A model generated the notes under the pieces. It ran no database searches, was not told the origin of the DNA, and saw nothing but the letters and a program-made list of their open reading frames with translations. Both the position numbers and the translations under genes were made by a program. Of a stretch of 35,281 bases of DNA, positions 8,644 to 35,281 are shown piece after piece; the first letter of the stretch is position 1, and each line of letters opens with the position of its first letter. This DNA comes from Sphingomonadales bacterium BRH_c42 (lineage in GTDB: Bacteria; Pseudomonadota; Alphaproteobacteria; Sphingomonadales; Sphingomonadaceae): NCBI GenBank assembly GCA_001516125.1, contig LOEX01000105.1, positions 1 through 35,281 of the forward strand. Direction: 5' to 3'.

Positions 8644-10119
8644 TCACTTCTTATTGAGCATGTCGCGAAGATCCTGCGGCAAGCTGTTCATATCCACCGA
8701 AGGCGCGCCGGAACCGCCGAGCCCCGGCATCCCGCCGGCAGGGCCGCCGCCCATCCCCGGCATGGCAGCGCCAAGGCCACCCTTTCCGAACAGGGCGCCA
8801 AGGCCCTTGAGCCCGCCCATCTTCCTGATCTGCTTCATCGCGCGCGACATTTCCTGATGCATCTTGAGCAGCTTGTTCACGTCCTGCACTTCGGTGCCGC
8901 TGCCCGATGCCACGCGCTTCTTGCGCTTGGCATTGAGCAGTTCGGGACGCGCGCGCTCTTTCGAGGTCATTGAGCCGATGATCGCGTCCATGTGCACCAG
9001 CACCTTGTCGTCCATTCCGCTTGCCGCAATCGCCTGCTTGGCCTTCTTCATGCCCGGCAGCATTCCCGCGAGCATTCCCAGCCCGCCCATCTGCTGCATC
9101 TGGCGCAGCTGCATGCGCAGGTCGTTGAGGTCGAACTGACCCTTGGCCATGCGCCTGGCCAGCGCCTCGGCATCTTCTTCCTTGATCGTCGCAGCGGCCT
9201 TTTCGACCAGGCTGACGACATCGCCCATGCCCAGAATACGGCCCGCGACGCGCGCGGGATCGAAGGCCTCGATCGCATCGAGCTTCTCGCCCGTGCCCGC
9301 GAACTTGATCGGCTTGCCGGTGACGTGGCGCATCGACAGCGCCGCGCCGCCGCGCGCATCGCCGTCCATCCGGGTGAGGATCACGCCGGTCAGCGGCACT
9401 TCGCCGCTGAAGCTCTGCGCCACATTGACCGCGTCCTGCCCCGTCAGGCTGTCAACCACCAGCAGCACTTCATGCGGCGATGAGATACGCGCGACCGCCT
9501 TCATCTCGGCCATCAGCGCGGCATCGACATGCAGCCGGCCCGCGGTGTCGAGCAGCAGCACGTCGATCGCCTGAAGCCTCGCCGCATCCATTGCGCGGCG
9601 AGCGATATCGACCGGTTGCTGCCCGGGAACGATCGGCAAAGTCGCCACATCGACCTGCTGGCCGAGCACCGCCAGCTGTTCCTGCGCGGCGGGCCTTTGC
9701 ACGTCGAGCGAGGCCATCAGCGCCTTCTTGCCGTGCTTTTCGCGGATCAACCGGGCGAGCTTGGCGGTAGTGGTGGTCTTGCCTGAACCTTGCAGGCCGA
9801 CCATCATGATCACCACGGGCGGGCGGGCGTTGAGATCAAGGCTGGGAACATCATCCCCGCCCAGCATCTCGACCAGCTCGTCATGGACGATCTTGACCAC
9901 CTGCTGACCCGGCGTGACCGAGCGCAGCACATCCTGGCCCACCGCCCGTTCTGTGACCGCATCGATGAAACGGCGGGCGACCGGCAGCGCGACATCGGCT
10001 TCGAGCAGCGCGATGCGCACTTCGCGCATAGCCTCGCGCACGTCCTCTTCCCTGAGCGCACCGCGGCCCTTGAGGCGATCGAAAACGCCGCCGAGCCGGT
10101 CAGACAGATTTTCAAACAT
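8644..10119 (-). CDS. ffh: Signal recognition particle protein (SRP54/Ffh)
   Basis: Ffh is the GTPase of the signal recognition particle; it binds 4.5S RNA and hydrophobic nascent signal sequences for co-translational membrane targeting. The ATG at 10119 gives 491 residues beginning MFENLSDRLGGVFDRL; the open frame extends 22 codons further, but these are not family-like. The N domain is followed by the GTPase motifs GLQGSGKTTTTAK (108-120), LDTAGRLHVD and TRMDGDARGG. The C-terminal M domain is Met- and Gly-rich (QLRQMQQMGGLGMLAGMLPGMKK, GAAMPGMGGGPAGGMPG). It ends just upstream of rpsP, the usual order in this group. Confidence 0.97.
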   Translation of the reverse strand: MFENLSDRLGGVFDRLKGRGALREEDVREAMREVRIALLEADVALPVARRFIDAVTERAVGQDVLRSVTPGQQVVKIVHDELVEMLGGDDVPSLDLNARPPVVIMMVGLQGSGKTTTTAKLARLIREKHGKKALMASLDVQRPAAQEQLAVLGQQVDVATLPIVPGQQPVDIARRAMDAARLQAIDVLLLDTAGRLHVDAALMAEMKAVARISSPHEVLLVVDSLTGQDAVNVAQSFSGEVPLTGVILTRMDGDARGGAALSMRHVTGKPIKFAGTGEKLDAIEAFDPARVAGRILGMGDVVSLVEKAAATIKEEDAEALARRMAKGQFDLNDLRMQLRQMQQMGGLGMLAGMLPGMKKAKQAIAASGMDDKVLVHMDAIIGSMTSKERARPELLNAKRKKRVASGSGTEVQDVNKLLKMHQEMSRAMKQIRKMGGLKGLGALFGKGGLGAAMPGMGGGPAGGMPGLGGSGAPSVDMNSLPQDLRDMLNKK

Positions 10120-22600: not shown

Positions 22601-22858
22601 AGGATCGCCGACCACGACATTGCGCAAGACCTGCCGCCGCGGACCGATCGATACGACCTCATACCTTGCGGGAATTCCCAGGTCCGCGAGCTGGCCAGCG
22701 ATGAAATCATCCGCGATTCTCTCGCGCTCCATCCAGACCAGGGCGCCAACCACCAGCGCAAGCACGAACGCCGCCAGTTCAAGCCGCGCCCTGTTGCCCT
22801 GCGGCAGCTTGCGCACGAGCCAGGACTTTTCAGCAAATGATTCATCGGCTTGCGGCAT
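19661..22858 (-). CDS. ydbH: YdbH-like AsmA-family intermembrane lipid transport protein
   Basis: A 1065-residue protein with an N-terminal membrane anchor (LELAAFVLALVVGALVWMERER, about residues 26-47) and a long periplasmic beta-rich body. Tell-tale C-terminal parts are GVSGTVRFSDLVALTTAPDQKLKIASINPGIEVFDGELTFELRDG, RRYVIEIVGADAALFVQQMDL, ATGTFDGSFPLVFDENGDGRIEDGQLISRPPGGNLSYVGEL. TamB, YhdP and YdbH are partly redundant bridges for phospholipids from the inner to the outer membrane. The length is somewhat more than the E. coli protein (about 880). It is head-to-head with radC, with only about 40 bases between starts. Confidence 0.9.
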   Translation of the reverse strand: MPQADESFAEKSWLVRKLPQGNRARLELAAFVLALVVGALVWMERERIADDFIAGQLADLGIPARYEVVSIGPRRQVLRNVVVGDPARPDLTIELVELRLRYRIGMPQIASLKLVRPRLQGKIGPDGLSFGALDKVIFAEREAPPQLPDIDLKLVDGQGRIATDYGPLLFAAAGSGGLDDGFRGSLVASGSRWTNGDCTAGPARLTGVIAVDDGKPSLRGPLHLARVACAASEFSLDALEMQLAMEVGRDLSSLSGKGAVKTGKLAQGTVRSQGLNGDLTLRATDGIVSSRFDLAARSVQFQQLMLTTLGAVGEVTLRGESGRIEASGKLHGNELRLGRGVDQSLRQAQANSVGTLAESLLGKFRGAIAREAKGSTLNAEFLLRSKQGTVSLVMPRAEWRGGSGAQLVALSQLQLALKGGSIEQISGNFLTGGRDLPQINGRIQRATGGMPVLRLAMEPYASGNSRLALPVLVVSQVDEGDFALTGKMVASGAIPTGSVEDAEFPLTGGWDSRGGAWLWRRCTDFHFARLTISELELEGSRARICPNGRAPILALDRRGTRFSARMDAHDWAGRLAGEPARIRFESARFSSRTGFAAEDIELAYGAADSRSRFVLGKVATSPGALAAGNFQAGEFALGPVPMDISEASGRWSFVNGVLSVAEGQFRVSDRQGSARFEPLVARDAVLEFADGRIEALAALRHPASDTIVTEVVIEHDLASAVGHASLAVDALRFDTQLQPADLSGLALGIVALADGTLNGSGRIDWRGSDVVSTGSITTDDFDFAAEFGPVNGVSGTVRFSDLVALTTAPDQKLKIASINPGIEVFDGELTFELRDGQFLSLKHGIWPFVGGTLILRPVQLNLKVPEERRYVIEIVGADAALFVQQMDLGNISATGTFDGSFPLVFDENGDGRIEDGQLISRPPGGNLSYVGELTYEDLSAMGNYAFQTLRSLDYRKMTVVMNGLLSGEIITQLKFDGVRQGKDASRNIFTKQLAKLPIEFRINIRAQFHQLLTSFKSLYDPSFLRDPRDLGLLTSDGTRFIRPDKEEPVPGDEPAIQRQESEQMP

Positions 22859-22896
22859 TGCTGCTTTCTCTTGCGCGCATTGCCCTCAATGAGGCA

Positions 22897-23505
22897 ATGC
22901 AGCGATGGAGCCATTACTCGAGGGATAGCTTGCCACAAGCTGAAGACAAACAGGAAAAGCATGCGGGCACTGGCCACCGTGCACGCCTGCGCGAACGTCT
23001 GCTCGGCGGCGGGGCCGAAGCGTTGGCCGATTACGAAGTGCTCGAGTATCTGCTGTTTGCGGGCATTCGTCAGGGCGATACCAAGCCGTTGGCCAAGGCC
23101 CTCCTGGCGCGCTTTGGAACGCTGGCGGGCGTGCTCAATGCCGATCCCGCAGCCTTGCAGCAGGTCAAAGGCCTTGGCGAGACGAGCGCCGCCGCACTCA
23201 AGAGCGTGGCTGTTGCCGCGCGGCGGATGGCGCGATCGGAAATGATGGGCAAGCCGGTGCTGGGCAGCTGGCAGGCGCTGCTCGATTATCTGGCGATCGA
23301 CATGGCGCATCTCACGGTCGAGAGGGTGCGCATCCTCTATCTCGATACGCGCAACCGGCTGATGGACGATCACCATCTGGGCGACGGCTCGGTCGACGAG
23401 GCCGCGATCCATCCGCGAGAGGTGATTCGCCGGGCGATGGATCTGGGTGCCAGCGCGCTGATCCTGGTTCACAACCATCCCACTCGCTCAAATCGATCAC
23501 GTTAG
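22897..23505 (+). pseudogene. radC: radC truncated at its JAMM motif by the island
   Basis: RadC/UPF0758 proteins join a helix-hairpin-helix domain to a JAMM (MPN) metalloprotease-like domain. Here the start is intact: GHRARLRERLLGGGAEALADYEVLEYLLFAG, the hairpin LARFGTLAGVLNADPAALQQVKGLGETSAAALKSV, and the first JAMM half to DLGASALILVHNHP. Normal RadC continues with SGDP and the metal-binding Asp; here Thr-Arg-Ser-Asn-Arg-Ser-Arg and a stop follow at 23505. At about 202 residues it lacks the last 25-30 and the catalytic Asp. The ATG at 22897 has a poor site; a TTG at 22930 behind GAGGGA is the alternative. The missing 3' end is not found elsewhere in the window. Confidence 0.85.
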
Positions 23506-23534
23506 ATCACGCACAAGCACGCTGAATCACTAGG

Positions 23535-23548
23535 AAATTCGCGAATTT
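23535..23548. repeat. 14-bp perfect palindrome near the left island end
   Basis: AAATTCGCGAATTT is its own reverse complement. It lies between the radC truncation and the integrase in a 174-base stretch without a gene. It may be an operator for the integrase or part of the attachment region; there is no direct evidence. Confidence 0.5.
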
Positions 23549-23562
23549 TTGCCCTTGCGTAG

Positions 23563-23607
23563 TGGGGGCGGTTTTGTCAAATTGGGGGCGGTTTAAGGGG
23601 TAGGAAA
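23563..23607 (+). repeat. Direct repeats, candidate arm-type integrase sites (left end)
   Basis: TGGGGGCGGTTT occurs at 23563-23574 and again at 23583-23594, a 20-base period, followed by AAGGGGTAGGAAA. Short G-rich direct repeats between the attachment site and the integrase gene are typical arm-binding sites of tyrosine integrases. A similar sequence on the opposite strand is found at the other end of the island (34905-34882). Confidence 0.6.
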
Positions 23608-23679
23608 CGGCATTCCGCTCCCAGCAAGCGATCCCCGTTTCTCCTTGACCGATCCCAGTTGCGGGACAGGAGAAACGTG

Positions 23680-24933
23680 ATGCCAAGCCTGACCGATACC
23701 GCGATCCGACATGCGTTGAAGCGTGTCGAAGCGAGCCAGAAACAAGAAAACCTCGCCGATGGCGAAGGGCGCGGGACCGGGCGGCTCGTCCTCGTCCTGA
23801 AGCCAATGCCCAAACGCGTGACCGCCGACTGGATGGCGCAGCAATGGCGTGACGGCAAGCGCTCCAAGAAGAAGATCGGCGCCTACCCTTCCATGTCCCT
23901 CGCCGAGGCGCGCGAGATCTACAAGCGCGACTATGCCGACGTTATCCAGAAGGGCCGAAGCATCAGGATTGCGACGGACACCCGTCCCGGCACCGTCGCC
24001 GACCTTTTCGAAGGCTATGTCGCGTCGCTCAAAGCCGCAGGCAAGCCGTCATGGAAGGAGACGGAGAAGGGCCTGAACAAGGTCGCCGACACGCTTGGCC
24101 GCAATCGCCTCGCCCGCGAGATCGATCCCGAAGAGATCGTCGAGGTCATCCGACCAATCTACGACCGAGGCGCGCGGGCGATGGCCGACCATGTCCGTGG
24201 CTATCTCCACGCGGCCTATGGTTGGGGCATGAAGTCCGACAACGACTATCGGAACACTTCGCCGCGCCGCTTTCGAATTCCCTTCAATCCGGCCACGGGC
24301 ATTCCGACCGAACCTAAGGTCCAAGGTACGCGCTGGCTCGACGAGGACGAGTTCGTCCGGCTCTATCGCTGGCTGGAAAGCCCCGACACGCCCATCCACC
24401 CGCCCTACACCCGCGCCGTCCGACTTCTCATGCTGACCGGCCAGCGGGTCCAGGAAATCGCTCGCCTCCATATCGACCAATGGGATGCCAGGGAGCGGAT
24501 CATCGACTGGTCGAAAACCAAAAACCTTCAGCCGCATGCCGTCCCCGTTCCATCGCTTGCCGCCGAGTTGCTCCAATCCATCAACGTGAATGAATATGGC
24601 TGGTTCTTCCCCTCAGCGACGGACCCATCGAAGCCCGTCAGCCATGGCACGCTCTATTCGTTCATGTGGCGCCAGCGCGATCGCGGTGTGATTCCCTACG
24701 TGACGAACCGCGATCTCCGTCGCACCTTCAAGACGCTCGCCGGCAAGGCAGGTGTCTCCAAGGAAATCCGCGACCGTCTCCAGAACCACGCGCTTCAGGA
24801 CGTCAGCTCCAAGAACTACGACCGCTGGAACTACATGCCCGAGAAGCGCGCCGGCATGGCGAAGTGGGACAAGTTCGTTCGCGCGATGCTGGCGAAGAAG
24901 AAAGGCACCGGCGCCTTGAAGAAGGCAGCGTGA
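23680..24933 (+). CDS. Tyrosine recombinase / site-specific integrase
   Basis: This 417-residue integrase catalyses integration and excision of the island. An N-terminal arm-binding DUF4102-like part (SKKKIGAYPSMSLAEAREIYKRDYADVIQKG) is followed by a core-binding helical domain and the catalytic domain. Catalytic residues: Arg256 in LTGQRVQEIARL, Arg347 in RDLRRTF, His370 in LQNHAL, nucleophile Tyr380 in KNYDRWNY. The His usually found three residues before the second Arg (HxLRRT) is Arg344 here, apparently a subfamily trait rather than damage. The ATG at 23680 has AGGAGA 6 bases upstream; the frame opens seven codons earlier. The stop overlaps the next gene by four bases. Confidence 0.95.
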   Translation: MPSLTDTAIRHALKRVEASQKQENLADGEGRGTGRLVLVLKPMPKRVTADWMAQQWRDGKRSKKKIGAYPSMSLAEAREIYKRDYADVIQKGRSIRIATDTRPGTVADLFEGYVASLKAAGKPSWKETEKGLNKVADTLGRNRLAREIDPEEIVEVIRPIYDRGARAMADHVRGYLHAAYGWGMKSDNDYRNTSPRRFRIPFNPATGIPTEPKVQGTRWLDEDEFVRLYRWLESPDTPIHPPYTRAVRLLMLTGQRVQEIARLHIDQWDARERIIDWSKTKNLQPHAVPVPSLAAELLQSINVNEYGWFFPSATDPSKPVSHGTLYSFMWRQRDRGVIPYVTNRDLRRTFKTLAGKAGVSKEIRDRLQNHALQDVSSKNYDRWNYMPEKRAGMAKWDKFVRAMLAKKKGTGALKKAA

Positions 24934-25349
24934 GCGGTCGGATTCTTGTGTTGGCCGCCGCGACCGCCGCTCTCTGCTACACCGCCCCGGCCCACGCAGA
25001 TCCGTGCGAAGGCATCCTTCCGACGCGGGCGGGTGTCCAGTTCTCCGGCATCGTCCGATACGTGGGAGACGGCGACGGCCTCTGTGTCGGGCGAACGGCG
25101 GACCCCAATGAGTGGATTGAAGTCCGCCTCGCCGATTTCAATGCCCCGGAGCTACACACCCCCGGCGGTCCCGCTGCCAAGACGGCGCTCGAACACCTGG
25201 CCCTGCGGCGCGAGGTCATATGCACATCCGAGCGCGGGCGCAGCGGCCGTGTCCGCTCGTTCGACCGCGTTATCGCACGCTGCCGCATCGGTGTGGCCAG
25301 TCTTGGCGACCTGCTGCGCCAGGCCGGCGTAGCCGAGGGCGGCAACTGA
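24930..25349 (+). CDS. Exported staphylococcal-nuclease-like (SNase) protein
   Basis: A 139-residue protein starting at the GTG that overlaps the integrase stop (GTGA). The start gives a signal peptide, MSGRILVLAAATAALCYTAPAHA, with cleavage before DPCEG. The mature part follows the thermonuclease pattern: VRYVGDGDGLCV (metal-binding Asp), IEVRLADFNAPEL (catalytic Arg; the usual DAPE is NAPE), and RVRSFDRVIARCRI in place of YGRVLA. Loss of one acidic residue may lower activity. The family hydrolyses DNA and RNA in a calcium-dependent manner. It probably belongs with the integrase as an accessory gene. Confidence 0.78.
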   Translation: MSGRILVLAAATAALCYTAPAHADPCEGILPTRAGVQFSGIVRYVGDGDGLCVGRTADPNEWIEVRLADFNAPELHTPGGPAAKTALEHLALRREVICTSERGRSGRVRSFDRVIARCRIGVASLGDLLRQAGVAEGGN

Positions 25350-25392
25350 TGCGATCCAGCTCGCCATTGACTCCGCATAGCTTGGAGGCTAT

Positions 25393-25758
25393 ATGAGTTG
25401 GAACGTCAGACTGCATGATGCCTTCGAGGCAGAGTTTCTGGCTTTCGAGCGCGAGGTCCAGACCGAATTGCTGGCGGTCGCGAAGCTGCTAGGCGAATAC
25501 GGCCCTCAGCTGGGTCGGCCCTATGCTGACACGCTCAAAGGCTCGAAACACGCCAACATGAAGGAGATGCGTTTCTCGGCCGCCGATGGCGAATGGCGTG
25601 CTGCCTTCGCCTTCGATCCCGAACGGAAGGCCATCCTTCTCGTCGCGGGCGACAAATCGGGCGGCAGCCAGAAGCGCTTCTACAAGCAGCTTATCGCAAA
25701 GGCGGACAGCCGGTTTTCCGCACATCTGGAAAACCTGAAATTCGCAAAGAAGGACTGA
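25393..25758 (+). CDS. HigB/RelE-like toxin (Gp49 family, DUF891)
   Basis: A 121-residue protein of the phage-derived Gp49-like / HigB group of RelE-superfamily mRNA interferases. Typical segments are LLAVAKLLGEYGPQLGRPYADTLKGSKHANMKEMRFSAADGEWRAAFAFDPERKAILLVAGDKSGGSQKRFYKQLIAKAD. The residues KEMR, WRAAFAF and the FYKQLI helix are the family core. It lies 4 bases before an XRE antitoxin gene in the toxin-first order typical of hig-type pairs. Confidence 0.9.
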   Translation: MSWNVRLHDAFEAEFLAFEREVQTELLAVAKLLGEYGPQLGRPYADTLKGSKHANMKEMRFSAADGEWRAAFAFDPERKAILLVAGDKSGGSQKRFYKQLIAKADSRFSAHLENLKFAKKD

Positions 25759-25762
25759 TCCG

Positions 25763-26131
25763 ATGGGCCGGAGCCTGGACGAAATCATCGCTTCCCTACC
25801 CCGCGACCAGCAGGAGCAGATCGAGGCGCGCTACGAAGAGCTGAAGCAGGAGGTCGAGGGCCTTCGCGAGCTGCGGGAGATCGCCGGAAAAGCCCAGGCC
25901 GACATCGCGACGGCGCTGAACATCAAGCAGCCGTCGGTCTCAAAGATTGAGAAGCAGGCGGACATGTATCTCTCGACGCTTCGCGGTTATGTCGAGGCGA
26001 TAGGCGGAAAGCTGGAACTGACCGTGAAGCTGCCGGCTCGTCCGGCATTCACGATCAACCATCTCGGCGATGTCGCCGCGCCGGCCGGCAAGCCTACCGT
26101 TGCTCGGCGCAAGGCCGTTTGCTTGCGGTAG
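25763..26131 (+). CDS. HigA-like XRE-family antitoxin
   Basis: A 122-residue helix-turn-helix protein. An N-terminal helical part (LDEIIASLPRDQQEQIEARYEELKQEVEGLRELREIAGKAQADIA) leads into the HTH TALNIKQPSVSKIEKQADMYLSTLRGYVEAIGGKLELTVKLP, typical of antitoxins paired with Gp49-like toxins. It would neutralise the toxin and repress the operon. The C-terminal FTINHLGDVAAPAGKP is unusual and may be variable. Confidence 0.9.
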   Translation: MGRSLDEIIASLPRDQQEQIEARYEELKQEVEGLRELREIAGKAQADIATALNIKQPSVSKIEKQADMYLSTLRGYVEAIGGKLELTVKLPARPAFTINHLGDVAAPAGKPTVARRKAVCLR

Positions 26132-26155
26132 GAGCCCCGATGACGCGATTGTTCG

Positions 26156-26400
26156 ATGTTGATGGAGGAGAATCTTGATCGCGGCTCTATTAATCTCAGA
26201 GCAGCAGAATCCCGCCACGAGCAGCAGCTTCACGAGCTGATCGATCGATGTGGGCGACCTACGAGCCCTACGCCGATCCGGATTTTCCCCAAGGCTTTGC
26301 GCACGACGTCGATGGCCGCTTTTGGGAAATGTATCTTGGCTGCACGCTGCTCGAAGCGGGCCGCGCGCTGCTGCCTGTCGTCGAGTGTCCCGACCCGTCC
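26156..26400 (+). pseudogene. Remnant of a conserved hypothetical gene
   Basis: This 373-base gap between higA and the hamB stop holds broken coding sequence. One frame reads LRAAESRHEQQLHELIDR (26190-26250); another continues MWATYEPYADPDFPQGFAHDVDGRFWEMYLGCTLLEAGRALLPVVECPDP (26248-26400). Joined by a one- or two-base shift at a GATCGATCGATG run, these look like the N terminus of a larger protein of a family I remember only as a hypothetical one (YEPYADP...RFWEMYL...LLEAG). After ECPDP the similarity stops. The open frame past 26505 only shadows hamB. Confidence 0.5.
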
Positions 26401-26504
26401 AGCCTTCACACTCCATCATCTTGGCGACGCGGCTGCCGACGGTGCGCCCCGCATACCTCCATTGGCACGGCGGCGCAGGCACGCCTAACAGACAAGCAGA
26501 GGGA

Positions 26505-29500
26505 TCAACGGTGGGGCAGATACGGCTCGCCGATGACGAAGGATACGGCCACCCGAAGCTCAAATTGGAACAGGGCGGGGTTCCCGGGCCAATCGCCTGG
26601 CTTTGCGCTGCGCGCCACCTCATAACCGGCTGGGTCAAGCCAGACAATTGCATCTGCCTCCACGAGCGGCAATACGACTAGTCGCTGCTGCCGATAGGCC
26701 TCGAGGGGACGAACGCATTCCACTTCAATCGCTATCGTTGCGGTATCTATCCGCGCTGCGCGCGGGGGCTGCCTAGCTTCCACCCATTCACGGATCGTCC
26801 GAGGGTCCAGAAGCGCGTTGGCATCTTCTCCCGCCGGACGGCCTTCGTAATAGGCTTTCGCATCCAGTTCGGCCCTGGGTCGATCAACTGCATCGCCGCG
26901 CGCGAGCAGAAAGGCGGCCACGGGATCGAGAGTACCCCAACTGATAAGCTCTTTCAGCCAGAAGCCGATCCACGGCAAACCGCTCAGAGGCCAGTCAGCG
27001 ATTTCCAGCGCGCGAATGGGCTGTCCGTCGTCAGTCGTATCCAGCAGCAGGCCGATGACGCTGCCGAGCCCCCAAGTTCCGCGATAGATAAAATTGTTCG
27101 CTACAAAGGCGTACCAGTTAGTAACTTCATTCGGTCGAGGTTGTCGTGCCAGCGTCGACTTGGCCAACCACCAACGAAGCAACATGGGCCAGTCATCGAA
27201 ATTCTTCTTCCGACCGAGTTTCGTTTCTATCGCAAACACCGGAATTTCGGATAGAAATGCCAACACGTCGCGAATGAAGTCGAACTGCTCCTCAGCGGTC
27301 CACCGCGCGTAATCGCGGCCCTGCGAAAGTTTGACACGAATTTCTTCTGCGCGATCCAGCAACAGCTTTGCAGATCGCGGAGTCAGACTCGTCTTATATA
27401 AACGCCGGCGCTGATCGGCATCGGGATACTGTGCCTTGATCGCTCTGCCACGCGCCAACCAGATCGTCGCCAGATGTGCCTCACCATGCGAAGCCGCATG
27501 CGCATAGGTGCGTCGCCAAATTTTGGCCAACTCCGCTTCAAGCTCGGCAGCGTCGAGTTCGATACCTTTGAGTTCCTCGACCTCCTGAATCGCCGCGATC
27601 AGAAATGCGTCAAGTGAGTCGAGATAGTCATGGCTGGACGGCGGATATGCCGCCTGCTCAGTCACGGCCGTTTGCTCAAGCCAAGCGGCGAATTCCGCCT
27701 CGGTTGCCCCTCCCATCAATGCTTGCCATGCACGCTCGAGTTCGCGCAGCAAGTGTCCCAGCGGACTCGACGCCCGATCTTCCGGGATCAAATCGCCCAC
27801 CGCCGCGGTCGCGGCCTCTAGCTGGGCTACCAGGCTCTCGTATCCGTTCCACTGCCGGCTATAAGTTGGCACGATCCGCCCGAACCGTCTCTCGTAGGTG
27901 CGTTCAGGCAGGATGACGAGCGCACTGCCTTCTGTTGCGACACCTGGCCGCCCCGCGCGGCCGATCAGATTGCTGAACTCCTGCAACGGCAACTCGCCAT
28001 TACTTCTGAAGACGCTTGGGATCAGCAGGAAATTGACAGGTATGTTGACCCCTTCCGACAGGGTCGATGTAGCAATGATGACTCGGACATACCCGCGATC
28101 GATAACGGTCTTCAGCCGTCGGGCGAGAAGGCCCGGCATCTTGCCATGATGCACCACGATACCGCGCGCCAGCAGCCGATACTCGACGGAATCCGCAGTA
28201 AAATAGTCGATGGCAGTCGCTAAGCAGCGTGCCCAAATCTCGTTGCCCTCCTCAATCGCCCAATAATTGGGAAGTGCGATATCCTGCCATTTGTCCAGCA
28301 GATCGGCGCACGTCGCGGCAAAGGTGTCGATATTCTGTGTCAGCGAGATCAGGACCGACGGCGTTGAGCCGTCCGGCCGTTTTGCCGCCAGGTTGAGCGC
28401 GGCCCACAACGTGGGCGCGCGCATCCGAACCTCGGGTCCGTCTTCGGGGTTCATACCCCCAGGAACAGCGGGAAATGGATCCGGTACGAACGGCGAGTCA
28501 TCCCGCTTCTCGTCGTCAAACTTCAGCGAGTGCCCATCCATCAGACTGTAGCGGATCGCGAACTGGCCGGTTGGGCGCACTTCGAGACGCCCGAGCATCT
28601 GCCGTGTGCTCCGATAGGATGAGCTGGTGGGCATCGCGTCGGGCGCATCGGAAACCCAGCGGGCCAAGGCAGGCGCTGCCCGAGCCGCAACCGCAGACAG
28701 CGCGACAATGCGGAAATCGTGATCTTCCCGTGCACGCATCAGGCGTGTGCCAAGCTGCTCAAGCCGGAAAGCGCGAGATGTTCCATCACCCAGTCCAGTC
28801 AGCCGGGCTTCGTCCTGCTCAACCATATGGGCTTCATCAATGATGACCGTGCGAACCCGGCTGAGAAACAGAACGCCTAGATAGCGCAGGAGCGCATCAG
28901 CCTTCTCGAATGTGCAGATGACCACGGTCGGCTGATCAGTTTGAATCCAGGCATCGGTCGGCCCCCAATCGACGCCTCCATACAGGCCCGTAACCACAAT
29001 CGGCTCCGCCGCGATTCCGCGAAGATCCTCAGCGAGGCGGCCCTCTACCTCTGCTGCGAGTGCGCGGGATGGAACGAGGTAAAGAACGAGATTGCCGGCG
29101 GTGGCTCCGACGGGATGATCAGCGAACAGACCTTGGACCGCGCCAAGGGTCGCGACCGTGGTTTTTCCTGAGCCGGTTGGCGTACACAGCACGAACGAGC
29201 TGTTGTCGCGCAACTTCGCGATGCCCGCCGCCTGCGCAGGCCAGACAAGTGCCCGCTTGTTGGCAAACGCCGACCGCGCAAACTGAGTGAGAGCATCGCC
29301 GGCCGGGCCGCTCGACGTCAGGCGGAGTTTGTCGATCTGTGGCCAGAGGCAGGTTTCGATGAACCGTCGCGCGCTGGCAGCCGTCAACCGCGCCAGCAGA
29401 TAAGAATAGGGATCGCGGCTATGCAGGAAGCCCAAGGCGAGCGCTTCCAGCTTAACAACCGCGCGCTCGACCGGGACGTCGCCGCCCGTTCTAAGAAACG

Positions 29501-30068
29501 CGCAAATCGTTCCGATGCACATGACGGTATGCTGGACGGCCGCGACTTCGAGGTCATTGGCATCGATGCGACCATCGACCCGTAGCCCGCGATAGCTGCT
29601 CCAGAACGTCTGCGCCGCCTGGAAAGCAGCCGGGAAGTCTGCCCGAACGAACTGCCGGAGAATCTCTGAAAGGGGCTCACCCTCTGGGAGCCGTCGCAAA
29701 TGTCCCAACGCCATCGCCGGATAATCGGCCAACTGAAAGGCGGCCGCAGCCAACAAATGAAGTGGGGCGCCCGCCGGCTTTAGCTGGGATTGCGAAAGCC
29801 ATTCGATAATCTCTGCCGCGCGCTTGATCGAGGTGCGCCACGGTGAGGTAAGGTCCGCGCTCCGTTCCAGCCATCCACTTTCCAGCAGCAACATCGCCTC
29901 TTCGAGATACCCGGCGATGTCTCCTGAACCGAAACTCGCCAAACCATCACGGCCCATGTCGCGGCGTAGTCGTTGGCTGTAGAGTTTGGCTTGCCGCGCA
30001 GTCAGAGCCTGGCCCGCCAGATTCTCTCGGATCTCTCGTGCGATGGCGATCGTAGCTGCGCTCGTCAT
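26505..30068 (-). CDS. hamB: HamB: Ski2-like DEAH-box helicase of a Hachiman defence system
   Basis: An 1187-residue superfamily 2 helicase. About 280 N-terminal residues form a helical domain. Then come motif I CTPTGSGKTT (295-304), motif II IIDEAHMVEQDEAR (410-423), motif III ALSAV (456-460), motif V IIATSTLSEGVNIPVNFLL (664-682), and motif VI NLIGRAGRPG (700-709); these are in the Ski2/Mtr4-like style. The last 450 residues are helical with no known domain. Partner HamA lies directly upstream; hamB's ATG at 30068 is one base past the hamA stop. In studied Hachiman systems HamB translocates on DNA and controls the HamA nuclease, degrading DNA when the genome is damaged. The assignment rests on motifs plus the DUF1837 neighbour. 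Confidence 0.88.
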   Translation of the reverse strand: MTSAATIAIAREIRENLAGQALTARQAKLYSQRLRRDMGRDGLASFGSGDIAGYLEEAMLLLESGWLERSADLTSPWRTSIKRAAEIIEWLSQSQLKPAGAPLHLLAAAAFQLADYPAMALGHLRRLPEGEPLSEILRQFVRADFPAAFQAAQTFWSSYRGLRVDGRIDANDLEVAAVQHTVMCIGTICAFLRTGGDVPVERAVVKLEALALGFLHSRDPYSYLLARLTAASARRFIETCLWPQIDKLRLTSSGPAGDALTQFARSAFANKRALVWPAQAAGIAKLRDNSSFVLCTPTGSGKTTVATLGAVQGLFADHPVGATAGNLVLYLVPSRALAAEVEGRLAEDLRGIAAEPIVVTGLYGGVDWGPTDAWIQTDQPTVVICTFEKADALLRYLGVLFLSRVRTVIIDEAHMVEQDEARLTGLGDGTSRAFRLEQLGTRLMRAREDHDFRIVALSAVAARAAPALARWVSDAPDAMPTSSSYRSTRQMLGRLEVRPTGQFAIRYSLMDGHSLKFDDEKRDDSPFVPDPFPAVPGGMNPEDGPEVRMRAPTLWAALNLAAKRPDGSTPSVLISLTQNIDTFAATCADLLDKWQDIALPNYWAIEEGNEIWARCLATAIDYFTADSVEYRLLARGIVVHHGKMPGLLARRLKTVIDRGYVRVIIATSTLSEGVNIPVNFLLIPSVFRSNGELPLQEFSNLIGRAGRPGVATEGSALVILPERTYERRFGRIVPTYSRQWNGYESLVAQLEAATAAVGDLIPEDRASSPLGHLLRELERAWQALMGGATEAEFAAWLEQTAVTEQAAYPPSSHDYLDSLDAFLIAAIQEVEELKGIELDAAELEAELAKIWRRTYAHAASHGEAHLATIWLARGRAIKAQYPDADQRRRLYKTSLTPRSAKLLLDRAEEIRVKLSQGRDYARWTAEEQFDFIRDVLAFLSEIPVFAIETKLGRKKNFDDWPMLLRWWLAKSTLARQPRPNEVTNWYAFVANNFIYRGTWGLGSVIGLLLDTTDDGQPIRALEIADWPLSGLPWIGFWLKELISWGTLDPVAAFLLARGDAVDRPRAELDAKAYYEGRPAGEDANALLDPRTIREWVEARQPPRAARIDTATIAIEVECVRPLEAYRQQRLVVLPLVEADAIVWLDPAGYEVARSAKPGDWPGNPALFQFELRVAVSFVIGEPYLPHR

Positions 30069-30069
30069 C

Positions 30070-30984
30070 TCAAGCGCCCCGGTACAATATATCGACTACG
30101 GCATCTAAATTCTCGAACTGAAACTCCATCGCCTCAAGGTTGCGCTGTATCGTATAGGCGGAGTGAGGAGCTTCGGGCGGAAGCCATGCGATCCGTTCAG
30201 CGGGCACTTTGGGAGAATTACCGACAGCATAAGCAAGCCCATCGTGGCGAGCTGCCGTGCGGAAGCCGTCCCTGTAGAACTGAAGCAGCGCCTGTTGCCA
30301 GGCTTCGGCTTCAGGCGTGTGATATTCCGTCAGGAGATTGATCAGTTCGCGCACGCCACTGGGCCGGCTCCCGCCGACCATCAGCTTTTCGTGGGCGTCT
30401 TTCATGATGCCGGTATTACTGACCGCGAGGCATTTGGCCTCGAGCGTCAGAATGTCGGTAATCACGCCATTGGCGTCGACTCGAAACGCTAGGCCATCGT
30501 CGCCTGTTCGACCTGGACGCTTCTCTTTTTCAGCATCTGGTTCATGCACCTCGCCCGCCAGAAGGCGCTCATTGATCAGGTCCAAATGTTGAAATTCCTG
30601 ATCGTGAAAGCGGAAAAGCAGCGCTGGAACCATCCAATCGGCATGTCCAATTGCTCCAAAGTGCTCGACAGCGAGCACGCCAAGCGTTTCGCCAAGATAC
30701 CCCTGCAATGATATGCGATTGAGCATCGCAGGATAATGTGCGGCAGGATCATGCGCCGGGTCGTTGAAGGGCGACAAATCATCTTGGAAGCCAGATCGAA
30801 TCCGACAACGGGCGTCGTCCAACGCTTCCTGAACATAGGCGATCAGTTCAACGCGCAATGCGCCGAGGGCGCCGTGGACTTCCCGCCAAACCCGTAACCG
30901 GTAGCGTTGATGCGTTTGGGGGATGCCTTGATCGACCAACCAGGAATTAAGAGGAACAGGTGTCAGTCGACGAAATCGGATCAC
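30070..30984 (-). CDS. hamA: HamA: DUF1837 PD-(D/E)XK nuclease of a Hachiman defence system
   Basis: A 304-residue DUF1837 protein. Nuclease core residues are visible: Glu99 in QGYLGETLGVLAVEHFG, Asp162/Asp163 in RTGDDGLAFRVD, and the Glu-x-Lys pair Glu182-Lys184 in ILTLEAKCL. The following SNTGIMKDAHEKLMVGG...RELINLLTEY helix is also conserved in the family. In characterised systems HamA is the effector nuclease held by HamB. The GTG start at 30984 overlaps the UvrD-gene stop (GTGA), and the TGA stop is one base before hamB. Intact active-site residues argue for a working enzyme. Confidence 0.87.
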   Translation of the reverse strand: MIRFRRLTPVPLNSWLVDQGIPQTHQRYRLRVWREVHGALGALRVELIAYVQEALDDARCRIRSGFQDDLSPFNDPAHDPAAHYPAMLNRISLQGYLGETLGVLAVEHFGAIGHADWMVPALLFRFHDQEFQHLDLINERLLAGEVHEPDAEKEKRPGRTGDDGLAFRVDANGVITDILTLEAKCLAVSNTGIMKDAHEKLMVGGSRPSGVRELINLLTEYHTPEAEAWQQALLQFYRDGFRTAARHDGLAYAVGNSPKVPAERIAWLPPEAPHSAYTIQRNLEAMEFQFENLDAVVDILYRGA

Positions 30985-32744
30985 GCCTGCACCTCATCAG
31001 GCTGGCCGGGCAGTGCTACGACGTTTTCCGCACCGAACCATGCCGTCAGTTTCGCCATCGCGTTTGCTGTCAGGATCTGAGTGAAAAGCAGCGCTAAGCG
31101 CACCTTGGGCCGTGAGCAAGCGACGTAGAACAGATTCCGATTATTCTCGAAAAACTCCAACTTGTCGTTCGGTGGACCGGCGTCGATCCATTCGAGCATC
31201 TGGGCAAAATTATACTTGTTCCAGCCCCTACCGACGATCACGAGCACATTTTCAAACTCGGCGCCTTTCACGCCATGCTTCGTCGCGAACGGCGTATGGC
31301 CATCAATGAATTGATCGAGCGCTATAACTTCCGCGTACGGGACAGTCCGCAGCTTGCGAAGCTGCGTGACACGCCGCGCCTCTCCATCAACGGGCTCAGC
31401 ACCCGTTTCCGCTAGCCTTCCCTCGCGTTCCTCCACCGCTTCGGGGAGCTGCATGTGCGCCTGCGCAGCAATGAAATCGATCACCTCACCAATCGACCCT
31501 GAGAGCCGTAGCGCGATTAACGTCGCCATCGCATCAACCCATGCGACCTTGTCCAGGTGCTTGCGAATGCGCGGCATACCCGTGCCGAAGCAGTCGAACA
31601 TCTCGCCGTAACGCTTTGCTTCGAACGCCGCACAGGCCGGCTCGAGCTGGTCGGTCAGGAACTTGATATGGGGGTCATCTTTCTTCAGCCACGGGTCGTT
31701 GAATTGACCATAGATCGGCGGGATGCTCGCGTAGCCCTGTTCGCGCGCCAGCACGCTGTGGCTGAGCATGAGTATCTTGGTCTTCCCGACTGCGAAATCC
31801 CAGCCTTCGCCGCCGAGCCGTTGCTTGATGTGACTGAAATATGCTCGGGCCGCATCGGCACTGGTGTCGCCGGTCCAATGGCCTCCCTGTCCAGTACGCC
31901 TCACGCCCGGCCACGCATTGGTGTGGTAGACGCGCGCTTCGCCGGGCGCATCAGGGTCGCTCACCATCTGCGGCAGATCGGGGCGCATACGGTTTAGCAC
32001 CTGCACGATCGGGTTCGCCGATCGGAAGTTGGCGTTCTTGTCGATCACCACAAGCGCTGCGTGCTCAACGGAGCCGCACCCATCGCCATAGATCTTCTGC
32101 CAATGGTCGCCGAAAAGCCCGATTAATGGGCCTTCGCCATGATCGAGAAACCAGACCTTAAGGGCATCGACAAACGCTGCGTCGGTGTCCTGATATTCGT
32201 CGATCAGCAGCACCGGATAGCGCGCGGTCAGCACCGCGCGAAACTTGGGAAGCGCCATGGCCTGAATCATCAACGCCAGCACGTCCTCGTGCCGGATCGT
32301 GACCTGTTGCTCGCCGACACTGGGATAGCCAAGCTCATAGTGCACCCGACGCGCACCGATGCCGCCAGCGGGCTCCAGCCTCTCGGCCCAACTGGGCAAT
32401 TCGGGCACGAGCGCACGCAACGTCGTCTGGAAATCCTGTAGGATCGACCAGCAAAAGCCATGGACGGTTTCAGGCCGCACCGCCGGATGAGCTTCGATAC
32501 GCGAGATTATCTCGTCTTTGGCGACGTTAGTGTATGTGATGCAGCCAACCTGCTGGCGCTGGCGAAGTAGCTCTGTGCCGCGCCGGTCGATGAGACGGCG
32601 AAGCGCCTTGTCGAGCGAATAGGTTTTGCCCGCTCCGGCGCCCGCTTCCAGACGAAAGCTTCTCCCTTCGTCGAGGCATGCGAACATCCGTTCAAGCGCG
32701 ACGCGGCCGGCGGCGTCGGCGGGACTTTCGGCGCCATCAGCCAT
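30981..32744 (-). CDS. UvrD/PcrA-like superfamily 1 helicase (GajB-like)
   Basis: A 587-residue helicase counted from the ATG at 32744 (MADGAESPADAAGRV). The frame could start 7 codons earlier at 32765, inside the OLD gene. Motif I EAGAGAGKT (34-42), Ia CITYTNVAKDEI, motif II LIDEYQDTD (180-188), motif III GLFGDHWQKIYG (209-220), motif V HGVKGAEFENVLVI, and motif VI NLFYVACSRPKVRLAL are in order. It is shorter than UvrD (about 720) and similar in size to GajB of Gabija systems. It overlaps the OLD gene stop by 8 bases and the hamA start by 4, so it is a linked component. By analogy it may sense DNA ends and activate the OLD nuclease; its role with HamAB is unknown. Confidence 0.88.
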   Translation of the reverse strand: MADGAESPADAAGRVALERMFACLDEGRSFRLEAGAGAGKTYSLDKALRRLIDRRGTELLRQRQQVGCITYTNVAKDEIISRIEAHPAVRPETVHGFCWSILQDFQTTLRALVPELPSWAERLEPAGGIGARRVHYELGYPSVGEQQVTIRHEDVLALMIQAMALPKFRAVLTARYPVLLIDEYQDTDAAFVDALKVWFLDHGEGPLIGLFGDHWQKIYGDGCGSVEHAALVVIDKNANFRSANPIVQVLNRMRPDLPQMVSDPDAPGEARVYHTNAWPGVRRTGQGGHWTGDTSADAARAYFSHIKQRLGGEGWDFAVGKTKILMLSHSVLAREQGYASIPPIYGQFNDPWLKKDDPHIKFLTDQLEPACAAFEAKRYGEMFDCFGTGMPRIRKHLDKVAWVDAMATLIALRLSGSIGEVIDFIAAQAHMQLPEAVEEREGRLAETGAEPVDGEARRVTQLRKLRTVPYAEVIALDQFIDGHTPFATKHGVKGAEFENVLVIVGRGWNKYNFAQMLEWIDAGPPNDKLEFFENNRNLFYVACSRPKVRLALLFTQILTANAMAKLTAWFGAENVVALPGQPDEVQA

Positions 32745-34812
32745 TGTCGCCAACCTCAGCGACATTCACGGCGACGCCGGCCACTCCCGCAACGATCTCG
32801 ACAGCGACAGCGGGCGGCGGCTCCAAAGGCGCGGGGTTACCCTGGGCCAACCAGCGCAAGCCCTCCGAAATGTAGCGCGGCACATTCCAGTCCGTGTGTT
32901 CGATCGCGTGCTCCAATGCGAACGTCGACTTTTTCTGCTCGGCCGCGCGCTCATAGGCGAGTGCGGCGGCATCCCCATCGCCCAGTGGGAAGCGCTCGGG
33001 ATTTGCAAGAATGAACGCATCTTCAAAGCTACGTGCGCACGGCCCGCCGTCTGCCTCCGGGATCTGATAGGCAAGCCGGCGACTGTCAGCCATCTTGTCG
33101 GGCGACGTCTTCGCCAACAACGCAGCCGGCGACACTGCATTTCCGAACCAGGCTTTGATGCAGCCGTTGCTGGTGAACTGACCGTCCGCGACAGGAACCG
33201 CCACATGCTTCCCTTTGTCATTAGGCTTCACGGCGTCGATTTCGGTGATGATCAGCGCGCGCAACTCAAGGAAGGCGAGAAGATCGAAAAACCGGTGTGC
33301 ATAGGCACCGCCCACTTCCATCACCGTCAGATACTGGCTGCCGAGCTGCGGCTCACCGACGGCGGCCGTGTCGGTCTTACGGATCATCGCCGGAAGCAGG
33401 AGTCTCTCGGACGTGCCCTCAATCAGGACGGCCTTGTCCGCGAAGAACAGGTCGCAGCGCGTAAGGGTCAGGTATTGATGCAGAAACTCTCGATCAGGCG
33501 CTGGCGCGCTGCCCATGCCCTGTCGCAGATCCTTGACGACTGAACGACGGATGCCGTCGCCATCTCCGACAGACAGGAAATACCGCATCGCCTCGAAGCG
33601 GGCTTCGTTCGCCATGTGCGGCGAATGCGTGGTCACGACGAACTGCACTGGCCAAGGGCGGTTCTCGTTGAGCTGCGACACGAATGCGCTCGTGATCTGA
33701 TCGAGCTGCCGTATGAAAACTTCCTGCATCTGGGGGTGCAGGTGGGCCTCAGGCTCCTCAATGAAGACCAAATGCACCCCGGCCGCGGCCGGCGTAGCCT
33801 GGTACTCCCGGAAGAAGCGCAGCAGCTGCAAAAGCATGTAAACGAGATTGCGGACGCCCAAGCCATTATATGTCTCGGGAAGCGTGATGCCGTTTACGCC
33901 GACATAGCGGACCTTGGTGTGGTCATTCAGGAGCTTGTCGACATCGAAGCTGGTCTCCGTGACGAGTCCGGGATCCGCCAGACCCGGATAGCCGAAGAGA
34001 TCGAACGTAGGCAGCAACGAGGTCAGCTTCGCATTGAAGCCGGCGTGCAGATCACCCTGTATCTGCTCTACGGCCGCCTTCAGCTGTTCGGCGGTGGTGC
34101 GTTTCTCCGGATCCAGCGGATCGGTCAACGCTGACTGAAACAGCACCTCCACGACCTTGCCCAGCACATCACGTTCGCGATGCGTGTCGTCATCCAGCCC
34201 GCGCTGGGCGTTGATGAAGCCGCCGTGGATGAGCGTGGTAAGAGTTTTGGGTTCCAGGGCTTTCCGATTGGTAGGGTCGTTGGGATCCACGGCTTCGAGC
34301 GACGAGGCGTAGGCCGCCGGCAGACGGCTTCCAAGAGCGCGAAACAAACCGAGACGATCGGCGGCGACATCGTCGCCCGGCGCTACTATCCCCGCGAAAA
34401 GCGTTTCGACAGCTGTCGCTCGCGGTCCGAACGTAAGAACCAGACGAGCGTCCGAGCAATCGGGATTGAGATCGATGATGCACTCGCTGAGTGGTCCCAG
34501 ATCAGGAGCATCCACATCGTAGGCGATATCAAGCGTGATGGTGATCGATGGGAGGTGCGCTCGAACGTCGAGCTGCGCAGCGCCGCTGCGGAATGCATCG
34601 AAAGCGATCCAGAAGCACTCATGACATCCCAGAGAAAAATCCTCGAGCTTGAACGCCAAGGTCCGCTCGGAAAGGAGCCGCCGGAAAAGCTCTGCGATTG
34701 AGGTCTTGCCGCTGTTGTTGCGCCCGACGATGAGCGTCGTTCGCTCTTCCAGCCCTATCGCGACATGCCGCAGAAGCCTGAAGTTTTCGATCTCGACATG
34801 TTTGATTCGCAT
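32737..34812 (-). CDS. OLD-family ATPase with TOPRIM nuclease domain (GajA-like)
   Basis: A 691-residue OLD nuclease counted from the ATG at 34812 (MRIKHVEIENFRLLRHVAIGLEERTTLIVGRNNSGKTS). Walker A is GRNNSGKT (30-37), a signature-like GLGVRNLVYMLL at about 317-328, Walker B VFIEEPEAHLHP (349-360), and the H-loop TTHSPHM (394-400). The C-terminal TOPRIM domain has LIEGTSERLLLP (Glu465, Glu469) and IITEID (521-526), where the usual D-x-D is E-x-D. Family members nick or cut DNA when nucleotide is depleted. Paired with the UvrD-like gene this resembles Gabija, although GajA is nearer 580 residues. It is the first gene of the operon. Confidence 0.88.
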   Translation of the reverse strand: MRIKHVEIENFRLLRHVAIGLEERTTLIVGRNNSGKTSIAELFRRLLSERTLAFKLEDFSLGCHECFWIAFDAFRSGAAQLDVRAHLPSITITLDIAYDVDAPDLGPLSECIIDLNPDCSDARLVLTFGPRATAVETLFAGIVAPGDDVAADRLGLFRALGSRLPAAYASSLEAVDPNDPTNRKALEPKTLTTLIHGGFINAQRGLDDDTHRERDVLGKVVEVLFQSALTDPLDPEKRTTAEQLKAAVEQIQGDLHAGFNAKLTSLLPTFDLFGYPGLADPGLVTETSFDVDKLLNDHTKVRYVGVNGITLPETYNGLGVRNLVYMLLQLLRFFREYQATPAAAGVHLVFIEEPEAHLHPQMQEVFIRQLDQITSAFVSQLNENRPWPVQFVVTTHSPHMANEARFEAMRYFLSVGDGDGIRRSVVKDLRQGMGSAPAPDREFLHQYLTLTRCDLFFADKAVLIEGTSERLLLPAMIRKTDTAAVGEPQLGSQYLTVMEVGGAYAHRFFDLLAFLELRALIITEIDAVKPNDKGKHVAVPVADGQFTSNGCIKAWFGNAVSPAALLAKTSPDKMADSRRLAYQIPEADGGPCARSFEDAFILANPERFPLGDGDAAALAYERAAEQKKSTFALEHAIEHTDWNVPRYISEGLRWLAQGNPAPLEPPPAVAVEIVAGVAGVAVNVAEVGDNG

Positions 34813-34881
34813 CTCATTCCCACCCCCCAACTGTTTGTTACACTTTTCGCGACTATCCGGCCGCTAACAACTCTATTCTGC

Positions 34882-34905
34882 TTTCCGACACTTAAAACTG
34901 CCCCA
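34882..34905 (-). repeat. Inverted counterpart of the left-end repeat (right island end)
   Basis: Read on the minus strand from 34905, TGGGGCAGTTTTAAGTGTCGGAAA resembles the left-end TGGGGGCGGTTTAAGGGGTAGGAAA (23583-23607) with a few mismatches and two single-base gaps. Opposed orientations at the two ends fit integrase arm sites at both ends of an integrated element. The surrounding 34813-35028 contains no gene on either strand that I can support; it must hold the defence operon promoter. Confidence 0.5.
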
Positions 34906-35028: not shown

Positions 35029-35281
35029 TTGCGTCCCAAGCCCGCCATAGAGTCTTTGCGCGTGCAGATCGAAAAGATCGAAGGCAGAGGCCAGCGCGTG
35101 AAATCGGTGCTTCCCTTCGGAATTGCCGAGGTGGATTCGCGACTCCCCGGCGAAGGCCTGGCGCTCGGCGCGCTGCACGAGATCGCGGGCGGCGGTAACG
35201 GCGCGATAGACGGTGCCGCCGCCGCGCTCTTCGCCGCCGGGATTGCTGCGCGCACCAAGGGCAAAGTGCTGTGGTGCCTCA
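35029..35281 (+). CDS. imuA: ImuA, SOS mutagenesis RecA-like protein (partial, N-terminal)
   Basis: The first 84 codons of a gene that leaves the window. From the TTG at 35029: MRPKPAIESLRVQIEKIEGRG, then LPFGIAEVDSRLPGEGLALGALHEIAGGGNGAIDGAAAALFAAGIAARTKGKVLWCL, the ImuA (SulA/RecA-like) pattern in which LALGALHEI and the following loop correspond to the degenerate ATP site. A GGAGGT site 11 bases upstream supports the TTG; a TTG at 35056 and a GTG at 35062 are weaker options. ImuA acts with ImuB and DnaE2 in damage-induced translesion synthesis; these should follow to the right. The LexA box fits. Confidence 0.85.
   Translation, partial: MRPKPAIESLRVQIEKIEGRGQRVKSVLPFGIAEVDSRLPGEGLALGALHEIAGGGNGAIDGAAAALFAAGIAARTKGKVLWCL

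What the first reader, a model, noticed from the sequence alone, without database searches (positions are those of the whole stretch)
26505..34812. Four-gene, translationally coupled defence operon joining a Gabija-like and a Hachiman pair
OLD nuclease, UvrD helicase, HamA nuclease and HamB helicase follow each other on the minus strand with junctions of 8-base overlap, 4-base overlap (GTGA) and a 1-base gap. Gabija (OLD-type GajA + UvrD-type GajB) and Hachiman (HamA + HamB) are known as separate two-gene systems; here no promoter-sized gap exists between them. This suggests one machine with two nucleases and two helicases, perhaps with HamB and the UvrD protein as two different DNA-damage or replication sensors, or two layers in which the second backs up the first. 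I cannot exclude that such a composite has been reported under another name; I know of DUF1837-helicase neighbourhoods but no functional study of all four.
Basis: partly seen in the sequence, partly recalled or inferred. Interest (0 to 1): 0.85.

Follow-up and report, generated by a model that had tools for sequence, protein, structure and literature searches.

The report
Gabija and Hachiman in one operon
Two well-known bacterial anti-phage systems, normally separate two-gene units, sit side by side on a mobile island and a small deletion appears to have merged them into one four-gene operon; the parts are ordinary, the merger is a detail seen so far in this genome only.

Summary
The four genes and three junctions are as described (8-base overlap, GTGA, 1-base gap): a Gabija pair and a Hachiman pair. 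P0003, which no curated sequence model recognises, is a divergent HamA: its family profile and predicted fold find E. coli HamA, with E182/K184 on HamA's catalytic E138/K140. It is probably not one four-part machine. Of 17 related HamAB loci with at least 4 kb upstream, 1 has Gabija beside it (Bosea lathyri); of 17 other GajA loci in 396 genomes of the order, 17 have GajB and 0 have HamAB. The outer two junctions also occur in stand-alone pairs. Only the middle one is new: Bosea has a 212-base spacer with a leader shared by 5 of 6 stand-alone HamABs; the window lacks 210 bases between two CGTGAT repeats, so GajB's stop overlaps HamA's start. Both copies lie on related integrase islands cutting radC. 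Most likely: two independent defence layers, now co-expressed. The window's GajA has one private change, D524E, in its nuclease metal site. Interest is modest.

The parts
32737..34812 (-). gajA: OLD-family ATPase with TOPRIM nuclease domain
   Evidence: PADLOC GajA PDLC00063 949 bits; Pfam AAA_15 168 bits and OLD-like_TOPRIM 51 bits, both above cut-off; profile matches PDB GajA chains
33241..33243 (-). codon 524 of gajA (GAA, Glu): first position of the TOPRIM DxD motif, Asp in the 11 other GajA aligned
   Evidence: only private change among 95 columns invariant in 11 other GajA; aligns to BcGajA D432; codon read
30981..32744 (-). gajB: UvrD/SF1 helicase
   Evidence: PADLOC GajB PDLC00113 879 bits; Pfam UvrD-helicase 67 bits; 8-base overlap with gajA also in L004, L053, L054
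30979..30985 (-). gajB/hamA junction: site of the 210-base difference from Bosea; gajB stop TGA overlaps hamA start GTG
   Evidence: BLAST blocks to L004 stop at L004:8880 and restart at 9084; CGTGAT at both ends in L004
30070..30984 (-). hamA (divergent): PD-(D/E)xK nuclease, D163, E182, K184
   Evidence: no curated family hit; profile hits PDB HamA 8vx9_A E=3.8e-4; model pLDDT 80.6, Foldseek 8vx9_A E=3.4e-5, probability 1.00
26505..30068 (-). hamB: Ski2-like SF2 helicase
   Evidence: PADLOC HamB 184 bits; PDB HamB 8vx9_B E=3.3e-27
25763..26131 (+). higA-like HTH antitoxin of the island
   Evidence: Pfam HTH_37; 81% identical over residues 1-106 in L004
25393..25758 (+). higB-like (Gp49/DUF891) toxin of the island
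   Evidence: Pfam Gp49 74 bits; 77% identical in L004
23659..24933 (+). tyrosine integrase of the island
   Evidence: Pfam Phage_integrase and Arm-DNA-bind_3 above cut-off; 88% identical in L004
22837..23505 (+). radC, cut at the HNHP codons by the island
   Evidence: Pfam RadC positions 3-77 of 121; BLAST homology to radC of 13 relatives ends at 23480-23482 in 13 of 13

Best explanation
Two independent, separately mobile anti-phage systems, Gabija (GajA nuclease + GajB helicase) and a divergent Hachiman (HamA nuclease + HamB helicase), were stacked as cargo of one integrase island inserted in radC. In the window's lineage a deletion of 210 bases between two CGTGAT repeats, with the loss of gajB's older TAG stop, removed the leader in front of hamA and placed hamA in a 4-base overlap behind gajB, with GAGG 8-11 bases upstream of its start. 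Hachiman is therefore now probably expressed by read-through from Gabija. Function inferred from the families: GajAB is released to cut DNA when phage drains nucleotides; HamB patrols DNA and frees HamA when it meets damaged DNA. Together they would be two layers of DNA destruction from one transcript. Shown here: gene identities, predicted fold of HamA, junction differences, shared island, purifying selection. Inferred: direction of the change (deletion), co-expression, activity, two-layer action.
For: HamA lies directly upstream of HamB in 21 of 22 HamB loci (L022 is cut by a contig end), Gabija in 1 of 22; with at least 4 kb upstream, 1 of 17. GajB follows GajA in 17 of 17 other GajA loci of the order, HamA/HamB in 0 of 17. 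A Calothrix plasmid has HamA and HamB in one ORF. Window and L004 match in the same order from 23392 to 34883. The 60 bases before hamA are alike in L004 and 5 of 6 stand-alone HamABs tested (z 5.0-13.1 against L004) but not in the window (z 0.1). The 8-base and 1-base junctions occur in stand-alone pairs. dN/dS 0.043, 0.129, 0.054, 0.068 for gajA, gajB, hamA, hamB. Mechanisms: Hachiman PMC12278908 (passages); Gabija PMC10822852 (passages). Gabija and Hachiman each gave resistance on their own in S. thermophilus (as told in PMC12322248, passage).
Against: No expression data. A promoter-like site (9 of 12) lies inside gajB at the same place in window (31168-31140) and L004 (8691-8719), so hamAB may have a promoter within gajB; and the scan found no such site on the hamA strand inside the Bosea spacer, so the leader is not shown to hold a promoter. 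The polarity rests on the shared leader and one comparison genome. L005, a stand-alone HamAB, also lacks the leader (z -0.7). Only the 8 closest loci were tested for it. Searches by P0001/P0002 could miss very divergent Gabija neighbours. dS differs between genes (0.76, 0.27, 0.44, 0.44), so the stretch is a recombinant mosaic. D524E may weaken the Gabija layer.
Confidence: 0.75

Rival explanations
1. One four-protein machine: GajAB and HamAB physically assemble and share sensing and cutting.
For: Gapless operon; the four genes kept together and under purifying selection in two genomes.
Against: The pairs occur apart in 16 of 17 HamAB loci with upstream sequence and 17 of 17 other GajA loci of the order; Bosea has a 212-base spacer between the pairs. 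Each system alone gave resistance in S. thermophilus (as told in PMC12322248, passage).
Confidence: 0.05
2. Two layers with a selected regulatory link (a stronger form of the main reading, overlapping with it): the fusion was favoured because Hachiman, which can kill the cell, is safer or better timed when tied to Gabija's expression.
For: Leader loss plus a new overlap and a GAGG before the GTG; hamA and hamB constrained between window and L004.
Against: Seen in one genome only; a neutral deletion gives the same picture; a promoter-like site inside gajB; no expression data.
Confidence: 0.25
3. Decaying stack (may be true beside the main reading): the Gabija half is already weakened by D524E in the nuclease metal site and the fusion is an early step of decay.
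For: D524E is the only private change in 95 columns invariant in 11 other GajA, while L004 and L053 have none; it aligns to active-site D432 of BcGajA (PMC10822852, passages).
Against: gajA dN/dS 0.043 and no stop or frameshift; Glu can also bind metal (general knowledge); a base error in this draft assembly is possible.
Confidence: 0.15

Closest known systems
Gabija (GajAB)
   Same: OLD ATPase-TOPRIM GajA followed by UvrD GajB; PADLOC PDLC00063 and PDLC00113 with 949 and 879 bits; 8-base overlap as in L053 and L054
   Different: Followed without a gap by Hachiman; Glu instead of Asp at the first DxD position of GajA
Hachiman (HamAB; PDB 8vx9)
   Same: HamA with E182/K184 on HamA E138/K140 and the same predicted fold, followed by a Ski2-like HamB
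   Different: HamA is below all curated sequence models tried; the leader shared by 5 of 6 close stand-alone relatives is missing; it stands directly behind gajB
Stacked defence systems on integrative islands
   Same: Integrase, toxin-antitoxin pair and two defence systems beside a cut chromosomal gene
   Different: The two cargo systems have been joined into one operon, apparently by a short deletion

Membership tests
Gabija | GajA: OLD-type ATPase plus TOPRIM domain | tested here: met
Gabija | GajB: UvrD/SF1 helicase encoded next to gajA | tested here: met
   8-base overlap
Gabija | GajA TOPRIM metal-site residues | tested here: inconclusive
   Both Glu on BcGajA E379/E383 and the second Asp of DxD (D434) are kept; the Asp on D432 is Glu. 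D511, D513 and K541 of BcGajA were not covered by the alignment
Gabija | GajA4:GajB4 complex, inhibited by nucleotides | not testable with these tools
   needs protein
Hachiman | HamA nuclease with D-E(x)K motif | tested here: met
   D163, E182, K184 invariant in the 20 aligned sequences, P0003 and 19 relatives; E182/K184 on HamA E138/K140
Hachiman | HamA fold | tested here: met
   Foldseek 8vx9_A E=3.4e-5 and 8vxy_A E=3.6e-5, probability 1.00; third hit E=0.15
Hachiman | HamA recognised by curated HamA/DUF1837 sequence models | tested here: inconclusive
   P0003 itself: 0 hits; 14 of 20 aligned members match PADLOC HamA1 PDLC00159 at E<=1, best 2.3e-5; no DUF1837 family among the Pfam matches of the 20 at E<=1
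Hachiman | HamB Ski2-like helicase encoded next to hamA | tested here: met
   8vx9_B E=3.3e-27; HamA upstream in 21 of 22 HamB loci
Hachiman | HamA-HamB complex activated by damaged DNA | not testable with these tools
   needs protein or phage assay
A single four-gene Gabija-Hachiman system | The four genes recur together across independent genomes | tested here: not met
   1 of 17 HamAB loci, 0 of 17 other GajA loci of the order; window and Bosea share one related island

The most novel reading that the evidence does not exclude
The fused operon is a working two-stage device: a Gabija complex whose nuclease is damped (D524E) acts mainly as a nucleotide-hydrolysing and DNA-end-sensing stage, its translation sets the HamAB dose, and HamAB makes the killing cut. 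A new regulatory architecture would then have been made from two stand-alone systems by one 210-base deletion.
Probability: 0.07. Interest if true: 0.75.

Novelty: new member of a known kind. Interest (0 to 1): 0.36.

Why it matters
It gives a before-and-after pair (Bosea spacer, window overlap) for how two neighbouring defence systems can become one operon, so the question whether co-expression of stacked systems helps or harms can be tested with natural sequences. It also adds a HamA branch that the curated models tried here miss, so Hachiman loci of this kind may be under-counted.

Tried and rejected
Single four-part machine: not kept as the main reading because the pairs are found apart. 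HamA as an unrelated nuclease: rejected by profile and fold. Phage carriage: no HamA or HamB relative in viral contigs and no HamA in phages; viral contigs gave 4 GajB relatives, none with a HamA or HamB match in the fetched stretch.

Far end of the island: no match to the missing RadC C-terminus in the window, in L004 or in 19.9 kb beyond it; the printed listing was cut and shows the results of two queries in full and a third in part. No repeat longer than 14 bases between the integrase side and the window's right end. So the right boundary is unknown. No match to the imuA-like peptide in any locus held beyond two chance-level ones, so no empty radC-imuA site was seen.

Gabija elsewhere in the genomes of the 22 HamB loci: 4 of 22 match P0002, but only Bosea at 93%; the other 3 are weak UvrD-like matches, E 1.5e-5 to 4.2e-4. 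Wider searches: P0003 in 150 relatives, 1 of 150, own genome; P0003 in the genus of Bosea, 4 of 67, namely the L004 and L006 genomes and two distant HamA, the latter two beside a HamB and without P0001/P0002 matches in the 12 kb fetched; P0003 in the order of Bosea at E<=1e-8, 1 of 397, Bosea itself; P0002 in the class, 15 of 385, all except the own genome at 31-49% identity; HamB model PDLC00174 in the class at E<=1e-20, 6 of 385 with the own genome, but it also rings in 4 of 14 control genomes, so it is not specific; of the 5 other regions fetched, 1 (L109) has HamA and HamB, and 0 have a P0001 or P0002 match.

Promoter scans: one or two promoter-like and zero or one terminator-like sites per stretch; only the site shared inside gajB is of note and it is told against the main reading. 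Literature: no paper describing the four-gene order was seen in the listings of searches; only open-licence PMC papers are held, so this is weak evidence of absence. The gajA upstream alignment had an empty window row (slice error) and was not used. One search failed on a file name and was redone.
Full report
Observation. The four ORFs, their coordinates and the three junctions are as stated. PADLOC names three of them: GajA (949 bits), GajB (879 bits) and HamB (184 bits); Pfam agrees for GajA, GajB and the DEAD domain of HamB. The third protein, P0003, has no hit in PADLOC, Pfam or NCBIfam and none in the PDB by single sequence.

P0003 is HamA. P0003 and 19 relatives, 25-92% identical to it and each encoded just before (in Calothrix, fused to) a HamB-like helicase, share an invariant D163 and E182-A-K184. 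A profile of these 20 finds E. coli HamA 8vx9_A at E=3.8e-4; the next PDB sequence (E=0.16) is the same protein changed at E138 and K140, and these two positions fall on E182 and K184. Those residues are the ones mutated in the Hachiman paper (PMC12278908, passages). A model built from 14 rows (pLDDT 80.6) has 8vx9_A and 8vxy_A as its only Foldseek hits at E<=0.001, probability 1.00. 14 of the 20 reach PADLOC HamA1 weakly (best E 2.3e-5); P0003 does not. So this is a divergent HamA that the models tried here miss.

Where the two pairs occur. A scan of genome contigs with HamB gave 22 loci; the scan needs short exact peptide patterns, so it finds near relatives only. HamA precedes HamB in 21 of 22 (L022 is cut by a contig end); Gabija proteins are found in 1 of 22, Bosea lathyri L004. 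Five loci (L002, L003, L010, L014, L022) have little or no sequence upstream of hamA; of the 17 with at least 4 kb, 1 has Gabija. L007 and L008 have the same ORF coordinates upstream and are probably one DNA, which would leave 16. In the whole genomes of these 22, a close GajB occurs only in Bosea. In the other direction, GajA at E<=1e-50 occurs in 18 of 396 genomes of the window's order, the own genome included; I fetched the flanks of all 17 others, and 17 of 17 have GajB and 0 of 17 have a HamA or HamB match. These 17 are not all independent: five (L138-L142) have nearly the same scores. Plasmids: 9 records with HamA and 110 with GajB, 14 of these at 60% identity or more; none of the 9 is among the 60 GajB records listed. 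Six of the 9 HamA records were opened: a HamB follows in 6 of 6, fused to HamA in Calothrix, and there is no P0001 or P0002 match in the stretches fetched. Three of the 110 GajB records were opened, with no HamA or HamB match. Other neighbours of HamAB differ: Iet in L015 and SoFic in L005, an ABC-three-component system and AbiH in Nitrobacter.

The junctions. The 8-base gajA/gajB overlap is the same in L004 and in L053 and L054, which have no HamAB; the 1-base hamA/hamB gap is the same in L004, L005, L006, L007, L009, L012 and L051. They say nothing about a four-gene unit. The middle junction is different. In L004 gajB ends in TAG and hamA begins after 212 bases; the window aligns with L004 up to L004:8880 and again from 9084. 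L004 has CGTGAT just after gajB and again at the hamA start; the window has one copy, so 210 bases are missing. The 60 bases before hamA are alike in L004 and in 5 of 6 close stand-alone HamABs (L006, L007, L009, L012, L051; z 5.0-13.1 against L004, 200 shuffles each), not in L005 (z -0.7), and not in the window (z 0.1 against L004, 1.5 against L012); more distant loci were not tested. The simplest reading is that L004 keeps the older form and the window's line lost the leader. With gajB's TAG also gone, gajB now ends in the TGA of GTGA, and GAGG stands 8-11 bases before the new start (sequence). Against simple read-through: a promoter-like site lies inside gajB at the same place in both genomes (window 31168-31140, L004 8691-8719), and none was found on the hamA strand in the Bosea spacer.

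The island. Window and L004 match in the same order from 23392 to 34883, in four blocks; besides the missing 210 bases, the window has about 320 bases (26071-26387) without a counterpart, next to a partial second copy of the higA end. The shared stretch takes in a tyrosine integrase (88% identical), a higBA-like pair (77-81%) and the end of radC. RadC is cut at the HNHP codons in both; homology to radC of 13 relatives ends at 23480-23482 in 13 of 13. The other edge was not found. L002, 98% identical in HamB, shares about 130 bases after hamB with the window, but its contig begins inside hamA. The window is a whole contig of a 2.19-Mb draft genome, 78% complete. Its family is probably Sphingomonadaceae: two 'same family' contigs have the lengths of named Sphingomonas and Sphingobium plasmids, 127461 and 148801; this is inference.

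Selection and history. Window against L004: dN/dS 0.043 gajA, 0.129 gajB, 0.054 hamA, 0.068 hamB; dS 0.76, 0.27, 0.44, 0.44. All four are kept, but the dS spread points to recombination. HamB dS from the window is 0.07 to L002, 0.44 to L004 and 0.48-0.67 to seven others, so L004 is only slightly nearer than loci without Gabija. The shared island is the better evidence for a common origin of the four-gene neighbourhood. No tree was built.

A blemish in GajA. Among 12 GajA compared, the window has one private change in 95 columns otherwise invariant, D524E; L004 and L053 have none. A motif search shows Asp in 22 of 22 other loci where the motif was found, and no motif in 2 (L113, L146); some of the 22 are copies of one another. 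The position aligns with D432 of Bacillus cereus GajA, listed among TOPRIM active-site residues in PMC10822852 (passages). The codon is GAA at 33243-33241. It could weaken the nuclease, be tolerated, or be an error of a draft assembly.

How it most likely works. From published mechanisms (PMC10822852 and PMC12278908, passages only), Gabija cuts DNA when phage drains nucleotides, and Hachiman frees HamA when HamB meets damaged DNA. Two stimuli and two nucleases from one transcript make a two-layer defence, and coupling would make HamAB dose follow Gabija dose. None of this was tested here. PMC11514479 (passages) cloned Hachiman and Gabija pairs separately and reports resistance from Hachiman; PMC12322248 (12 of 34 passages) says both gave resistance alone and combines each with CRISPR; the passages seen do not describe Gabija plus Hachiman together.

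Verdict. The observation and the system names are right; the single-machine reading is not supported. Seven literature searches (listings) showed no report of the four-gene order, but the library holds open-licence papers only.

Noticed in passing
L056:6983-11686 (Calothrix sp. PCC 6303 plasmid): HamA and HamB are one annotated ORF of 1,567 codons, a natural fusion of the Hachiman pair.
   Followed up: partly
window 33241-33243: Private D524E in the DxD motif of GajA's TOPRIM domain.
   Followed up: partly
window 22837-24933 and L004:15003-17089: Related integrase islands inserted at the same HNHP codons of radC in two genomes, probably of different orders.
   Followed up: partly
window 26388-26495: A partial second copy of the higA 3' end lies just after hamB; L002 and L004 share this stretch.
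   Followed up: partly
window 35062-35280 (+): Start of an ORF that I recognise from memory as ImuA-like (mutagenesis cassette); no NCBIfam hit, one place in the genome.
   Followed up: partly
L007 and L008: Two metagenome bins named Phenylobacterium and Pseudolabrys show the same ORF coordinates around HamAB; probably one contig in two bins.
   Followed up: no
L002: HamB 98% identical to the window's in a bin named Rhodopila, which I recall as another order: very recent transfer or misbinning.
   Followed up: no
L094, L095 and hits H6, H9: Divergent HamA genes are annotated 'aminotransferase' in plasmid records; in L094 and L095 a helicase gene follows.
   Followed up: no
L138 (G920): GajA copy with an in-frame TAA although copies of nearly the same score in four other genomes show none.
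   Followed up: no
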